Positions 105 to 8,241 of a stretch of DNA of 8,370 nt are shown one piece after another. Position 1 is the stretch's first letter. Every line of letters starts with the position of its first letter. The notes under the pieces are model-generated. The model saw nothing but the letters and a program-made list of their open reading frames with translations, ran no database searches and was not told the origin of the DNA. Origin of the DNA: Desulfobacula sp. (lineage in GTDB: Bacteria; Desulfobacterota; Desulfobacteria; Desulfobacterales; Desulfobacteraceae); NCBI GenBank assembly GCA_027858355.1, contig JAQICW010000473.1, positions 1 to 8,370 of the forward strand, read 5' to 3'. Both the position numbers and the translations under genes were made by a program.

Positions 105-120
105 TGGCATATAAAATGCA
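105..120 (+). promoter_or_regulatory. Sigma-54 (RpoN) -24/-12 promoter of the first methyltransferase gene
   Basis: TGGCATATAAAATGCA fits the sigma-54 consensus TGGCAC-N5-TTGCA in its invariant parts: GG at 106-107 and GC at 118-119, exactly 10 bases apart. Transcription would begin near 131, leaving a leader of about 107 bases before the ATG at 238. A copy differing by one base sits upstream of mttB at 1908-1923, which argues strongly that this is functional and not chance. Sigma-54 promoters need an ATP-dependent enhancer-binding activator; none is encoded in this window. Confidence 0.75.
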
Positions 121-237: not shown

Positions 238-1677
238 ATGGACCATATTCAAGAAACAGGTTTGTTTTTAGAAAACCCGATTGATGTAATTCCCAACGCT
301 TATTTAGATGAAATTCATGGGGTAACAATTGATATCCTGTCGAAAAAAGGTGTTGTTGTCCATCTTGAGAAGGCCAGGGATGTTTTGGCTTCAAAGGGTG
401 CAAGAGTTTCAGGTGAGATCGTATATATTGATGAACCGCTTTTAACGGAATCTATTGATTTAACACCAAAAAGTTTTCAGATGACAGGCCGGGATAACCG
501 TTCACCTCTTGTTTTTGGGAAAGGGCAGAAACGGCCGGTGATTTGTCCAGGAAATGGCACCATGTCCATTATTGAAACAAACGGCAATAAAAGACCGAGC
601 ACTACCCTTGATTTTGATAATATTACCAAACTTTGCGAGTCAAGTGACGTTGTGGATATGATTGGATCTATTCCTGTGGAAGCATCTGATATGTCAACCA
701 AATCAAGACATCTTCACCTGCTTCGACATCTCATCCGTCACAGCCACAAACCGCTTATCGGCATTGCTACTGATTTTGCGGAAACAATGGAAAGCTTTAC
801 TCTGCTGGAAATGGTTTACGGTGAAGGATTCTTAAAGGATAACCATGTGATTGCCTATAGTGTAAACCCCATCAGCCCATTGGCGTTTGATCCCCTGGCC
901 TGTCAGACACTTATGGCATATGCAGAAAATAATCAGGTTCTTTTTATCCTGCCCGGACCCATGGCTGGTCTTACCGGACCATTGGACATGTATGGAATGC
1001 TGGCGGTCATCAATGCTGAAAATTTAGCAGGTATCTGTCTGGCCCAGGCCGTTTCCCCTGGAACACCCGTGGTATATTCCAGTGGTGCCATGACGGCTGA
1101 TATGCGGTGGGCCAACACCATAACGGCTGCTCCGGAAGGCAGCCTTATCGGTATGGCTGCAATGCAGCTTGCCCGGTATTATCATCTGCCGTCCAGGGCC
1201 ATGGCAGGGCTCAGCGAAGCCAAGCAGGTGGACTATCAGGCGGGCATGGAAACCATGCAGAACTACCTTGGGCATGCTATGGCAGGGGTGGGCGTTGTAA
1301 ACGAATGCCTGGGGGTGATGGACTCCATTATGAGTACCTCCTATGAAAAATGGATATTAGATGAAGAGCTGATCAGCCGTGTGGAGCTTATGAATAGAGG
1401 TCTGGGCATCTTTGATAAAGCAGATATCTTTGAGACAATTAATAATGTTGATCACAAAGGAACCTATCTTCTGGAAAAATCGGTTTTTCAAAATTGTCAC
1501 AAAATATGGAAGCCCTCGGCATCCTTCTGGCAGCCCTATGACATGTGGGCAAAACAGAGACCGGGTATCCTGGAAAAAGCCGGCCAGATTTGCAAAGATC
1601 GTCTGGCAAGCCAGGAAAAACCCTTGCTGGCGCCAGGGCTGGATAAGGATTTAGGAAAATATATTGAAGGTTTGTAA
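238..1677 (+). CDS. MttB-superfamily corrinoid methyltransferase without pyrrolysine
   Basis: The 479-residue product has the length and TIM-barrel sequence pattern of the trimethylamine methyltransferase (MttB) superfamily. Recognisable family segments include GPMAGLTGPL near residues 240-249, then NAENLAGICLAQ and PGTPVVYSSGAM, and the segment PSRAMAGLSEAK near 318-329. In MttB the residue after this last glycine is pyrrolysine; here it is Leu325 (codon 1210-1212), so this belongs to the non-pyrrolysine branch. The characterised member of that branch, MtgB, demethylates glycine betaine, but the branch is broad and the substrate here cannot be read from sequence; other quaternary amines are equally possible. 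The protein should be cytoplasmic and transfer a methyl group to the cobalt of a partner corrinoid protein. I chose ATG 238 because AAGGA lies 10 bases upstream; a TTG at 199 would add 13 residues with no clear ribosome binding site. No terminator is evident after the stop, but the next gene has its own promoter. Confidence 0.9.
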   Translation: MDHIQETGLFLENPIDVIPNAYLDEIHGVTIDILSKKGVVVHLEKARDVLASKGARVSGEIVYIDEPLLTESIDLTPKSFQMTGRDNRSPLVFGKGQKRPVICPGNGTMSIIETNGNKRPSTTLDFDNITKLCESSDVVDMIGSIPVEASDMSTKSRHLHLLRHLIRHSHKPLIGIATDFAETMESFTLLEMVYGEGFLKDNHVIAYSVNPISPLAFDPLACQTLMAYAENNQVLFILPGPMAGLTGPLDMYGMLAVINAENLAGICLAQAVSPGTPVVYSSGAMTADMRWANTITAAPEGSLIGMAAMQLARYYHLPSRAMAGLSEAKQVDYQAGMETMQNYLGHAMAGVGVVNECLGVMDSIMSTSYEKWILDEELISRVELMNRGLGIFDKADIFETINNVDHKGTYLLEKSVFQNCHKIWKPSASFWQPYDMWAKQRPGILEKAGQICKDRLASQEKPLLAPGLDKDLGKYIEGL

Positions 1678-1907: not shown

Positions 1908-1923
1908 TGGCATATAAAGTGCA
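1908..1923 (+). promoter_or_regulatory. Sigma-54 (RpoN) -24/-12 promoter of mttB
   Basis: TGGCATATAAAGTGCA has GG at 1909-1910 and GC at 1921-1922 with the obligatory 10-base spacing. It matches the element at 105-120 at 15 of 16 positions, while the surrounding sequences are otherwise different. Transcription would begin near 1934 and give an mttB leader of about 130 bases. The twin promoters imply that both methyltransferase genes answer to one activator, presumably sensing methylated amines (inference). Confidence 0.78.
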
Positions 1924-1980: not shown

Positions 1981-2027
1981 AGGAGGAAAAAAAAGTGAGT
2001 TGGCGGCAGGCGTGCCTGCCGGGTTGA
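1981..2027 (+). promoter_or_regulatory. mttB leader: strong Shine-Dalgarno, 10-codon mini-ORF and GC-rich hairpin
   Basis: A perfect AGGAGG (1981-1986) is followed 8 bases later by GTG at 1995, which opens a ten-codon frame (MSWRQACLPG) ending in TGA at 2025-2027. The mini-ORF contains the palindrome at 2004-2021, with a 7-base-pair stem of CGGCAGG and CCTGCCG and loop CGTG, much richer in GC than the DNA around it. The mini-ORF is in the same frame as mttB but is separated from it by TGA at 2025 and TAA at 2040. It may be a translated leader peptide that controls mttB, or a small repeat inserted between an original ribosome binding site and the gene. Which is correct cannot be told here. Confidence 0.4.
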
Positions 2028-2066
2028 ATGAGATATGAATAACCTTTTAATTTACAGGTGAATGAA

Positions 2067-3548
2067 ATGGGATCAAAAAATCCATACTCAGACATGGTCG
2101 CAACCGGTGGTTTTGGCTTTAATGTTTTTGGAGACGATGAAATTGAAAAAATTCACCTTGCCACCCTTGAAGTGATGAGAACAACCGGGCTTTATGTTGG
2201 AAGTGATGAAGCCCTTGATATCCTTGAAGGGGGAGGTGCAACAATTAATCGCAAGAAAAAGATTGCTAAATTTCCAGCATATCTTGTGGAGGACTGCATC
2301 CGTTCGGCACCGCCGAATATAGTTCAATACGGACGTGACCCAAAGCAGGATGTATTTCTGGGAGGCAAAAGAGTTAATTTTTGTACGTTTGGGCAGGGTG
2401 TTAAGGTAATGGACACAGATGGTTCGGTCAGACCATCCATCAATGAGGATGTGGGCAAAGCAGCCCTCCTGACAGATGCCATGGAAGAAGTAGATGTGTG
2501 TGAACGATCCCTGACTGCAGGTGATGCACCAGATAATGTCGCACCCATCCATGAAGCGGAAGTGGTCTTTGCCAACACGTCAAAGCATACGGTCTACGGA
2601 CCTGGCAACGGCTGGCGGGCTGATAAAATCATAAAAATGGCCCAGGCCATTGTCGGGGGAGAAGAGGCTTTAAGGGACCGGCCGATTCTTACTATTAATT
2701 GTTCCCCCACAAGCCCGCTTACCCTGGATGTAAACTGCTGTACCGGGGTTATGACATGTGCAAAGGCCGGTGTCCCCTGCAACCTGATCTCAATGGTAAT
2801 GGCCGGTGCATCCGGGCCAATTACACTTGCAGGATCCCTGGTTACACACAATTGTGAAATCCTGGGGGCCATAGTCCTGCATCAGCTGACATGTAAAGGG
2901 GCACCCGTCATTTACGGTTGTTCTTCTCTGGCATTTGACCTGAAACTGACCACAACACCAGTGGGATCTCCGGAATGCGGCATGTTGAATGCTGCAGCTC
3001 CGGTTCTTGCCCAGAAATATATGCTCCCGAGTTTTTCTGCCGGTGGCTAGGCTGACTCTAAATTACCCGATGCACAGGCTGGTCACGAAAAGACTCTGAC
3101 AGCCATGTGCGCAGCCAATGCAGGCTCAAACTTAATTTACGGTGCTGGAATGTTGGATTCTGGACTGATTTTCAGTTATGCCCAATTGGTTATTGACAAT
3201 GATATTTTTAAAATGGTTCGAAAAGTGATGCAGGGAATTGTAGTAAATGATGAGACCCTTGCAATAGATACGATCAAATCGGTAGGACCCGGTGGTGACC
3301 ATCTGATGCAGGCCCATACAATGAAATACATGAGAACACTGCCCTCTGCACCCCATATTATCGAACGTGCCAATTACGATCGCTGGCTTGGAAAAGGTGG
3401 TAAGGACATGGCAGAACGTGCAGCGGAAAAAGCAGCTGATATTCTGGCCAACCACAAACCCATACCGCTATCAGAAGAAACAAAATCTGCAATGAGAAGT
3501 ATTGTTGAAGATGCAACAGCAGAAAATAAAGAAATGAATAAAAAATAA
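2067..3548 (+). CDS. mttB: Trimethylamine:corrinoid methyltransferase with in-frame amber codon (pyrrolysine)
   Basis: This gene encodes the enzyme that takes a methyl group from trimethylamine and passes it to the cobalt of the corrinoid protein MttC. The frame is open from 2058 to 3548 except for one TAG at 3048-3050. Reading TAG as pyrrolysine gives 493 residues, the usual MttB length, with Pyl at residue 328; the Methanosarcina enzyme has it at about 334. Homology is unbroken across the codon: PSFSAGG precedes it and ADSKLPDAQAGHEKTL follows, then IYGAGMLDSGL, all typical of the family. The upstream half shows GASGPITLAGSLV, GAPVIYG and TTPVGSPECGMLNAAA. I prefer ATG 2067, because AGGTGA (2056-2061) is a good Shine-Dalgarno 5 bases before it; the GTG at 2058 adds three residues and has no good site. 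An ordinary annotation would wrongly split this into a 330-residue protein and a fragment starting at 3105. Function depends on pyl genes and an mttC elsewhere. Confidence 0.93.
3048..3050 (+). other. In-frame UAG read as pyrrolysine
   Basis: The single amber codon falls exactly where MttB proteins carry pyrrolysine, the residue thought to bind and activate the methylamine. The paralogue at 238-1677 aligns without a gap across the site (PSFSAGG-Pyl-ADSK against PSRAMAG-Leu-SEAK), which fixes the position. I see no strong stem-loop directly after the codon, in keeping with reports that mttB lacks a conserved insertion structure. Confidence 0.92.
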
Positions 3549-3632
3549 TTTGATCATTAGTTTGGGACACTTCTTTCCGGTAGGTGCCAGATAGAACGTC
3601 AGGAACTGCGATCAAATGTTATCCAACATGAG

Positions 3633-3660
3633 AACTACCCCTGAATTCCAGGGGTAGTTT
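3633..3660 (+). terminator. Hairpin terminator after mttB
   Basis: AACTACCCCTG (3633-3643) and CAGGGGTAGTT (3649-3659) form a perfect 11-base-pair stem around the loop AATTC, 85 bases after the mttB stop. The T-tract is short, only the TTT ending the stem, followed by A residues, so termination may be incomplete. The reverse strand lacks a T-tract too, so I assign it mainly to mttB, although it sits in the gap between convergent genes and may also limit transcription from the minus-strand thioesterase. Confidence 0.7.
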
Positions 3661-3709
3661 AAAAATCCAAGAAAAAAATTTATCTGTACCAAGGGTGGAT
3701 CGGATGGGA

Positions 3710-4189
3710 TCACCTATTTTTTTTTAGGCCTGTTTCAAATATATTTACATCTTTCGCAAGCTTGAAAACAGCCGAAAATTTCATTACCTCTCTATCATTT
3801 TCATCAAAAACCATTGAAGACCCTTGGATCATTCTGTCTTTTAAAAGTTTTACTTTGGCTTTGGATGTCAGCACTCCCTTTGTTACTGGAGCAAGAAATT
3901 CAGAGTTTAATGAGATTGTAACAAAACGACTATTCGGAGGAATAATACTTTTTATTGCCATGGCCACTGAAGTATCAGCAAGTGCTACAATGGCGCCTCC
4001 ATGTGCCAGCCCTTTTCCCTGGGCTAATTGAAAAACAAATGGCATGGTTAAGTGAGCATGACCATCCCTGGCTTCAATAATTTTTATCCCAAGGAGTTCT
4101 TCAAAAGGTGCGCAGCTGATCCATTTACCAAGTTCGACTTTATGCGGCCCAGTGAATGATACGTCTGTTTTTTCTTTTTGCTTTTCCAT
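3710..4189 (-). CDS. PaaI-like hotdog-fold thioesterase
   Basis: The 159-residue product matches the PaaI/YdiI type of hotdog thioesterase, which hydrolyses acyl-CoA or aryl-CoA thioesters in the cytoplasm, usually as a tetramer. The signature is LAHGGAIVALADTSVAMA: His63-Gly64-Gly65 begins the central helix, and Asp72 lies where the family has its acidic catalytic residue. A beta-rich second half follows (TISLNSEFLAPV, then alternating strands up to FSAVFKLAKD). Residues 1-20 are charged and poorly conserved. The start ATG has no clear Shine-Dalgarno, and no other start is available before the conserved core. The C-terminal coding end runs through a stretch of nine T on the plus strand (A on the message), a spot prone to length change. 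The gene stands alone, convergent with mttB and divergent from the transporter; the substrate cannot be predicted. Confidence 0.85.
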   Translation of the reverse strand: MEKQKEKTDVSFTGPHKVELGKWISCAPFEELLGIKIIEARDGHAHLTMPFVFQLAQGKGLAHGGAIVALADTSVAMAIKSIIPPNSRFVTISLNSEFLAPVTKGVLTSKAKVKLLKDRMIQGSSMVFDENDREVMKFSAVFKLAKDVNIFETGLKKNR

Positions 4190-7451: not shown

Positions 7452-7607
7452 TTGAAAAAAGATATTCAAGCCCATCCCCAAATGGTTGGTGAAATTATTA
7501 ACATGTATCTGATTTCCAGGCATTTGGAAAGAATAGGAGACCATACCACCAATATTGCAGAAGAGGTGATATATCTTATAGAGGGTGAGATTGTGCGGCA
7601 TAAATGA
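7452..7607 (+). pseudogene. phoU: C-terminal remnant of PhoU, phosphate-transport regulator
   Basis: From TTG 7452 to TGA 7605-7607 the frame encodes about 51 residues that match the last helix pair of PhoU, above all ISRHLERIGDHTTNIAEEV followed by IYLIEGEIVRHK at the C-terminus. Intact PhoU is a cytoplasmic protein of roughly 220 residues that links the Pst phosphate transporter to the PhoR kinase, so about three quarters is missing. The frame is open upstream only to 7422, inside the end of the preceding gene, and there is no ribosome binding site. The missing part was presumably lost when the DUF6125-like gene was joined to this point. The stop overlaps ATG 7604 of the next reading frame (ATGA), the usual tight coupling of phoU with a kinase gene. 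Confidence 0.8.
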
Positions 7608-7610
7608 GTA

Positions 7611-8241
7611 TTGAGTTTTGCCAAGAATTTAAAAAAAGATCAGGATCAGATCCTCTATATTGATGAACAATGCAAGGAGATTGGAAAAACAACCGGGACA
7701 AGGGTTACCATTATTCTTCCTTCCGGCCTGGTTGCGGGGGATTCTTTTGGAAATATAAATAGAATGGAAAACCATATGAAGCAGCCGGAAATCAGGGAAG
7801 CCCTGAAAAGGAAAAAAGGAGTTTCCCTACGGTACAGTGCGACCCTTGATAAAAATATGATTTATATCGCTCTTCCTGTGATGCTTAAAGAAAGAGTGAC
7901 TGCCATTGTACGCCATGGTGGATCCCATTCAATGGAGCAGGCCATTATCAATCTTGTGGACAATGCTATTAAATACAGCCATGAAAATAAAACTATTGCC
8001 ATCATGGTTTCAAAAACAGATACGACTAGGGATATTGTAATTAAAGACAATGGCTGGGGAATTGACAAAGAACATTTATCAAAGATCTTCAACCGGTTTT
8101 ACAGAGTGGACAGGGCATGAAGGCGGCACAGGACTTGGTCTGGCCATTGTTAAACATATTGTCCAGTATCACCGTGGAAACATTGATGTCCAAAGCAAAA
8201 AAAATATCGGCACCTCCTTTAAAATCAGTATTTCTGCCTGA
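7611..8241 (+). pseudogene. Decayed PhoR-like sensor histidine kinase, internally deleted and frameshifted
   Basis: The frame starting at TTG 7611 first encodes a PhoR/PnpS-type extracytoplasmic sensor domain (TGTRVTIILPSGLVAGDS, then MENHMKQPEIREAL and IYIALPVM). Near 7910-7925 it jumps straight into the ATP-binding domain: MEQAIINLVDNAIKYS (N box) and DNGWGIDKEHLSKIFNRFYRVDRA. The second membrane helix, HAMP, PAS and the whole HisKA domain with the phosphoacceptor histidine are absent, and the first membrane helix is missing at the N-terminus. At 8118-8120 the frame ends in TGA, while the last ATP-binding motif, EGGTGLGLAIVKHI, continues in the +1 frame from 8119 to the stop at 8239-8241, consistent with a small out-of-frame deletion of the linker that normally precedes it. 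With three lesions the gene cannot make a working kinase. Its place after the phoU remnant supports a former phosphate-response kinase. Confidence 0.82.

What the first reader, a model, noticed from the sequence alone, without database searches (positions are those of the whole stretch)
3048..3050. In-frame amber codon at the pyrrolysine site of a bacterial mttB
The frame is open on both sides of one TAG, with MttB homology flowing through it without gap, and the TAG falls at the exact pyrrolysine position by alignment with the neighbouring paralogue. A random nonsense mutation hitting just this codon, with 165 following codons undamaged, is unlikely. Bacterial pyrrolysine systems are rare and are normally misannotated as two ORFs.
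Basis: partly seen in the sequence, partly recalled or inferred. Interest (0 to 1): 0.88.

Follow-up and report, generated by a model that had tools for sequence, protein, structure and literature searches.

The report
Pyrrolysine-coded methyltransferase beside broken pylT
A bacterium related to marine sulfate reducers most likely reads one internal 'stop' codon as the rare amino acid pyrrolysine in an enzyme that probably strips methyl groups from trimethylamine; this is a known kind of system, with the odd detail that a broken piece of the special tRNA gene lies just behind it.

Summary
TAG 3048-3050 is codon 328 of an ORF with 165 open codons behind it. The read-through protein passes NCBIfam's Pyl-MttB cut-off (650 v. 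525 bits); the TAG aligns with Pyl334 of a solved MttB, and Gly110, Met249 and Tyr364 are kept. TAG stands in 9 of 9 relatives that reach the codon. Behind TAG the window's own branch has 2 replacement and 16 silent changes. PylSc is above cut-off in 9 of 10 relatives' genomes; one relative shows pylT, pylSn, pylBCD and pylSc together. So the TAG is almost surely pyrrolysine, a known kind of gene in this group. The window's genome is not held, so its own pyl genes are unseen. Not noticed before: 141 bases behind mttB lies a 24-base 5' remnant of tRNA-Pyl, exactly where relative L001 has an intact pylT. It is cut inside the gene and joined to a thioesterase gene; a working pylT must lie elsewhere, or decoding was lost very recently, or the contig is misjoined. 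The gene sits in a clade of its own; its substrate is untested. PYLIS RNA structure gets no support.

The parts
2067..3548 (+). mttB, Pyl-type trimethylamine methyltransferase family, read through one TAG (493 residues counting Pyl; GTG 2058 is an alternative start)
   Evidence: a public protein set holds it as a 327-residue protein that stops at the TAG (P0002)
3048..3050 (+). in-frame TAG, the pyrrolysine codon (residue 328 from ATG; aligns with residue 334 of 7xcm)
3048..3147 (+). stretch matching Rfam PYLIS_3 (87.4 bits, gathering 38); read here as sequence homology of mttB, no support for a conserved RNA structure
238..1677 (+). MttB-superfamily paralogue without Pyl (Leu in the Pyl column)
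   Evidence: TIGR02369 259.7 bits, below the cut-off of 525; Pfam MTTB
3632..3660 (+). strong 12-bp hairpin between mttB and the pylT remnant; L001 has a strong hairpin of different sequence at the matching place
   Evidence: -20.4 kcal/mol, z -5.2 to -5.9, 0 of 200 shuffles as good; L001 11566-11616 -16.9 kcal/mol, z -5.2 (the weaker value came from a stretch I had cut too short)
3690..3713 (+). 5' remnant of a tRNA-Pyl gene: 22 exact bases with L001 (3692-3713); first three bases CAA where L001 has GGA; anticodon arm, T arm and 3' acceptor strand missing
   Evidence: ARAGORN finds no tRNA in the window
3714..3719 (.). junction between the pylT remnant and the 3' end of the thioesterase gene
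   Evidence: homology to L001 ends at 3713; homology to thioesterase loci of relatives begins at 3720 (L125, L127) or 3717 (L129)
3710..4189 (-). hotdog-fold thioesterase gene on the far side of the junction; its stop codon lies in the pylT remnant
   Evidence: TIGR00369 and 4HBT
1908..1923 (+). sigma-54-like -24/-12 word TGGCATATAAAGTGCA upstream of mttB (consensus recalled)
   Evidence: the two such words are the only matches in the window, 0.14 expected, 1 of 200 shuffles had 2; pattern match only
105..120 (+). sigma-54-like word TGGCATATAAAATGCA upstream of the paralogue; the same 16 bases stand at L002 8237, upstream of the paralogue's relative there
   Evidence: pattern match only

Best explanation
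The gene is a pyrrolysine-containing methyltransferase of the MttB family in a Desulfobacterales-like bacterium. A tRNA-Pyl with CUA anticodon, charged by PylSn/PylSc with pyrrolysine made by PylBCD, reads the UAG, giving one protein of 493 residues. Pyl328 would bind the methylamine through its imine, with Tyr358 and Gly109 (numbering from ATG 2067) helping to activate it, and the methyl group would pass to a corrinoid protein and on to tetrahydrofolate. Shown here: the frame, the alignment, conservation of TAG, selection behind it, and pyl genes in relatives. Inferred: decoding in this very organism, the methyl acceptors, and the substrate. The pylT copy that once stood behind mttB is broken in this contig, so the working tRNA gene is most likely elsewhere in the genome (inferred, less sure than the pyrrolysine reading itself).
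For: TIGR02369 650.2 bits. Alignment to 7xcm with residues 334, 364, 110 and 249 matched by TAG, Tyr, Gly and Met (counted by hand, read against passages of PMC9842639). TAG in 9 of 9 relatives that reach the codon. dN/dS against L001 0.042 behind and 0.049 before the TAG; window-only changes behind TAG 2 replacement, 16 silent, binomial p 2e-8 if three quarters were expected to be replacements (my assumption). PylSc above the cut-off in 9 of 10 relatives' genomes, a 63-position piece at a contig end in the tenth; of 14 control genomes only Methanosarcina acetivorans is above it. In 86 genomes of the G002 family TAG-mttB and PylSc occur together in 25, TAG-mttB alone in 5, PylSc alone in 3, neither in 53 (Fisher p 1e-13, genomes treated as independent although they are related). 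In L038, tRNA-Pyl and PylSn, PylB, PylC, PylD and PylSc, each protein over its NCBIfam cut-off.
Against: No pyl gene is seen in the window except a broken pylT, and the genome is not held. Five of the 30 family genomes with TAG-mttB show no PylSc, three of them neither PylSc nor the pylT patterns; their completeness is not told. Against the more distant L004, L005 and L006 the part behind the TAG has more replacements than the part before it (dN 0.18-0.19 v. 0.11-0.13), though still few beside silent changes. No corrinoid-protein gene is among the eight window proteins scanned. The substrate of this clade is not known.
Confidence: 0.92

Rival explanations
1. Pyl decoding has recently been lost or is failing: a rearrangement cut the only pylT, and the TAG now ends translation, leaving mttB a young pseudogene.
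For: The pylT at the position it holds in L001 (141 bases behind mttB in both) is cut after 24 bases and its first bases are changed. In G001 the one match to the pylT pattern is the copy behind mttB, so a lineage whose assembly shows a single pylT at this place exists. Other decay is near: PhoU-like and PhoR-like remains at 7452-8241 with a stop and a frameshift.
Against: Only 2 of 18 window-only changes behind the TAG are replacements, so any loss would have to be very recent. ARAGORN finds tRNA-Pyl in 7 of the 10 stretches fetched around PylSc in relatives, so pylT often stands with pylS; 3 family genomes (G027, G052, G070) have two intact copies.
Confidence: 0.05
2. The contig is misjoined inside pylT; the real genome has an intact pylT behind mttB.
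For: The break falls inside a tRNA gene, and the sequence on the far side belongs to other neighbourhoods in relatives.
Against: The two sides share no overlap visible by eye at the break. The first three bases of the remnant (CAA) are, as a triplet, in none of the 28 intact copies of the G002 family nor in L001, which have GGA, GGG or GAA: this speaks for decay.
Confidence: 0.15
3. The TAG is an ordinary nonsense mutation or a sequencing error.
For: None found.
Against: The same codon in 9 of 9 relatives that reach it, in 44 of the 47 listed clusters of 71% identity or more an end right after ...AGG, and selection behind it.
Confidence: 0.01

Closest known systems
M. barkeri trimethylamine methyltransferase MttB (PMC9842639, passages; PDB 7xcl, 7xcm, 7xcn, which I take to be its entries)
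   Same: Same family over nearly the whole length (phmmer 391.8 bits); columns 334, 364, 110 and 249 match
   Different: Gln instead of Thr beside Gly110; bacterial; no corrinoid gene among the eight window proteins scanned
TMA methyltransferase of the marine Deltaproteobacteria-bbl genomes (PMC8318568, passages)
   Different: The paper describes a corrinoid gene nearby; none is seen here. Its sequences were not compared here, so whether it is of the window's clade is open
Pyl-MttB beside the pyl locus of relative G002 (L038 5231-6721)
   Same: TAG at the same column; TIGR02369 730.2 bits
   Different: 47% identical to the window's protein; another clade in the tree
Non-Pyl MttB superfamily, such as glycine betaine methyltransferase (PDB 9yce) and 2qne (putative methyltransferase)
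   Same: Same family; the paralogue at 238-1677 is of the non-Pyl kind
   Different: No Pyl; weaker match to the window's mttB (236.6 and 236.7 bits)

Membership tests
Pyrrolysine-containing MttB (TIGR02369) | Score above the curated cut-off over the whole protein | tested here: met
   650.2 v. 525 bits, residues 20-486
Pyrrolysine-containing MttB (TIGR02369) | In-frame UAG at the Pyl334 column | tested here: met
Pyrrolysine-containing MttB (TIGR02369) | Gly110 and Tyr364 (fully conserved per PMC9842639) and Met249 | tested here: met
   alignment, counted by hand, read against passages
Pyrrolysine-containing MttB (TIGR02369) | pylT, pylS and pylBCD in the same genome | not testable with these tools
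   no genome held; pyl genes seen in relatives
Pyrrolysine-containing MttB (TIGR02369) | Cognate corrinoid protein gene nearby | tested here: inconclusive
   none among the eight window proteins scanned; may lie outside the window
Pyrrolysine-containing MttB (TIGR02369) | Demethylates trimethylamine | not testable with these tools
   needs an assay
tRNA-Pyl gene (piece at 3690-3713) | Complete cloverleaf with CUA anticodon | tested here: not met
   only the 5' 24 bases are present
PYLIS RNA element | Rfam gathering score | tested here: met
   87.4 v. 38 bits
PYLIS RNA element | Conserved base pairing in relatives | tested here: not met
   10 sequences: 71.3% of cells paired, shuffles 71.0%; covariation score reached by 133 of 500 shuffles. 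The slid versions pair less (15.7-42.5%), which favours the pairing but is expected of a structure that fits the consensus. A passage of PMC3639795 reports no sign of common structure for mttB

The most novel reading that the evidence does not exclude
The contig catches a lineage moving or losing its expanded genetic code: an ancestral mttB-pylT unit (still intact in L001) was broken inside pylT, so the UAG now depends on a second, relocated tRNA gene or has none; with the cut pylT in G003 (contig C312, broken at the anticodon loop) pylT would be a recurrent breakpoint, so that Pyl decoding is gained and lost through breaks in its own tRNA gene.
Probability: 0.1. Interest if true: 0.6.

Novelty: new member of a known kind. 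Interest (0 to 1): 0.33.

Why it matters
Protein sets stop at the TAG: of the 47 listed clusters of this clade 44 end right before it. Read correctly, the gene is one of several Pyl-MttB genes in some genomes of the group (up to five with TAG in one genome), and I know of no tested substrate for this clade. The pylT remnant gives a concrete place to ask how an expanded genetic code moves or is lost.

Tried and rejected
Own genome: not held. The 3' part of tRNA-Pyl was sought elsewhere in the window: nothing beyond chance, so a split or permuted tRNA with both parts inside the window is not supported. Orphan 3' parts in the G002 family: 30 sites in 27 of 86 genomes match the 3' pattern; 28 of them belong to the 28 intact genes, the other two (G051, G082) have no match to the 5' pattern and were not looked at. 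The remnant as a terminator: no terminator-like site, and its fold is no better than shuffles (z -0.27). PYLIS as a structured element: not supported. Other recoded TAGs: the eight window ORFs examined end in TAA or TGA. A mobile element in pylT as cause of the window's break: the G003 case breaks at another place, and no integrase was looked for beyond the ORF lists; left open. Literature: searches showed no title or abstract start about a truncated tRNA-Pyl gene; I saw only listings, and passages of four papers, of which only two were searched with a term that bears on it (pylT in PMC8318568, 0 occurrences; pseudogene in PMC3639795, passages not shown).

Rows left out: leave out the partial loci L007, L008, L010 and L011; one search uses L001, L002 and L003 only. 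The tree uses 19 of the 120 listed proteins and keeps matches spanning at least 380 residues. One search was given 10 of the 11 loci (L011 comes from the same isolate as L008).

Full report
OBSERVATION. TAG 3048-3050 lies in frame in an ORF that starts at ATG 2067 (or GTG 2058) and ends at TAA 3546-3548. It is codon 328, with 165 codons behind it. The read-through protein matches NCBIfam TIGR02369, the Pyl-type trimethylamine methyltransferase, over residues 20-486 at 650.2 bits (cut-off 525), and Pfam MTTB. The best solved relative is 7xcm, trimethylamine methyltransferase (391.8 bits); counted by hand on that alignment, the TAG falls on chain residue 334. The structure paper of M. barkeri MttB names Pyl334 (PMC9842639, passages), gives Gly110 and Tyr364 as fully conserved in Pyl-MttBs, and Met249 as moving on MttC binding; the window has Gly, Tyr and Met in these columns. 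Thr111 is Gln here.

CONSERVATION. One scan of the GTDB genome contigs gave 11 relatives. Nine reach the codon and all nine have TAG there; the other two are cut short. Of 1407 public protein matches the best 120 were listed; 70 are shorter than 400 residues, and 67 of these end in ...AGG, directly before the Pyl codon; of the 47 clusters at 71% identity or more, 44 do so. The window's own protein is listed as a 327-residue stump (P0002).

SELECTION. Against L001 (dS 1.05 before, 0.80 behind) dN/dS is 0.049 before and 0.042 behind the TAG. Against the more distant L004, L005 and L006 the part behind the TAG has more replacements than the part before it (dN 0.18-0.19 v. 0.11-0.13), and dS is near or at saturation. 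Changes seen only in the window, where L001, L002 and L003 agree, are 9 replacement and 18 silent before the TAG, and 2 replacement and 16 silent behind it. The part behind the TAG has been under selection on the window's own branch.

MACHINERY IN RELATIVES. The window's genome is not held. Of the 10 relatives' genomes given, 9 have PylSc above the cut-off, and the tenth has a piece at a contig end; at the looser E <= 0.001 the search also rings in 13 of 14 control genomes, but above the cut-off only in one, Methanosarcina acetivorans. In the 86 genomes of the G002 family, 28 have PylSc at E <= 1e-20 (27 above the cut-off) and 30 have an mttB match at E <= 1e-100. Of the 58 matches, 51 carry a TAG (one of these also a TAA) and 7 have no stop. 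TAG-mttB and PylSc occur together in 25 genomes, TAG-mttB alone in 5, PylSc alone in 3, neither in 53. G002 has one stretch with tRNA-Pyl, PylSn, a corrinoid protein, a methyl-THF-type methyltransferase, PylB, PylC, PylD, PylSc, a BCCT transporter, a second TAG-mttB and a non-Pyl MttB. ARAGORN finds tRNA-Pyl in 7 of the 10 stretches fetched around PylSc.

THE pylT REMNANT. In L001 an intact tRNA-Pyl with CUA anticodon stands 141 bases behind mttB. A single BLAST match joins window 2050-3713 to L001 9990-11659 at 83% and stops inside that tRNA gene. In the window the piece also begins 141 bases behind mttB; 22 bases (3692-3713) are identical, and the 21-base word has 0 expected by chance. The three bases at its start are CAA in the window and GGA in L001; the 28 intact copies in the G002 family have GGA, GGG or GAA. 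The remaining two thirds of the tRNA are not in the window. Between mttB and the piece both have a strong hairpin of different sequence. From 3720 on, the window matches the end of a thioesterase gene that has other neighbours in relatives. So a break inside pylT joined two neighbourhoods, in the genome or in the assembly. ARAGORN of the 29 pylT-pattern sites of the family intact. The exception is in G003 (contig C312), a copy cut at the anticodon loop behind an etfA gene; 69 bases there are 98.6% identical to the end of the contig holding G003's intact pylT. Whether that is a variant strain, an inserted element or an assembly effect was not settled.

WHAT KIND OF MttB. In a tree of 69 rows the window's gene falls in a clade of 10 rows (8 different sequences, support 100/100), apart from the other Pyl-MttB clades. 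Its members come from Desulfobacterota genomes, except L006, whose record is titled Deltaproteobacteria and which the tree tool places in Myxococcota; a Clostridia bin (L010, partial) also has a relative at 74%. It is 47% identical to the copy beside the pyl genes of G002. Its active-site residues suggest a methylamine, most simply trimethylamine, but this is inference. Four of the seven relatives in the tree (L001, L002, L003, L009) carry a non-Pyl MttB paralogue within 1.9 kb upstream, as the window does; only that of L002 groups with the window's.

PYLIS. The Rfam PYLIS_3 match (87.4 bits) starts at the TAG, but its base pairs are kept no better than in shuffles. RNAalifold's own structure gains nothing from covariation (term +0.23; 2 of 21 pairs with a change on both sides). 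The match most likely reflects coding homology.

VERDICT. It is a new member of a known kind: Pyl-MttB in marine Deltaproteobacteria has been described (PMC8318568, passages). The pylT remnant is the part that deserves a second look.

Noticed in passing
L047 517-585 (minus strand; G003 contig C312): A second truncated tRNA-Pyl gene, cut at the anticodon loop behind an etfA gene (Pfam ETF_alpha), followed by sequence with a repeated 'tggtagca' and the start of a small ORF with a weak ribbon-helix-helix match (E 0.015, below cut-off); perhaps the end of a mobile element.
   Followed up: partly
public proteins P0047-P0055, P0058 and others: Of the 50 full-length MttB relatives among the 120 listed, 15 have Trp at the Pyl column (TGG is one change from TAG), 12 His; five of the closest Trp forms make one clade beside Pyl clades in the tree.
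   Followed up: partly
L003, L008 and L009, mttB ends: In 3 of 8 relatives whose end was read, the same ORF has TAG both at the Pyl site and as its apparent final stop.
   Followed up: no
window 7452-8241: PhoU-like piece (Pfam PhoU), then a stop, then a histidine-kinase-like ORF to 8120 whose ATPase domain goes on in another frame (HATPase_c in both pieces); looks like decayed phosphate-regulon genes.
   Followed up: partly
window 105-120 and 1908-1923: Near-identical sigma-54-like words (consensus recalled) upstream of both mttB genes; 2 found, 0.14 expected; the first recurs in L002 upstream of the paralogue's relative.
   Followed up: partly
window 2004-2021: Perfect 8-bp inverted repeat CGGCAGGC-GT-GCCTGCCG 45 bases before the mttB start; similar hairpin-like sequence stands before mttB in L003 and L009 (by eye).
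   Followed up: no
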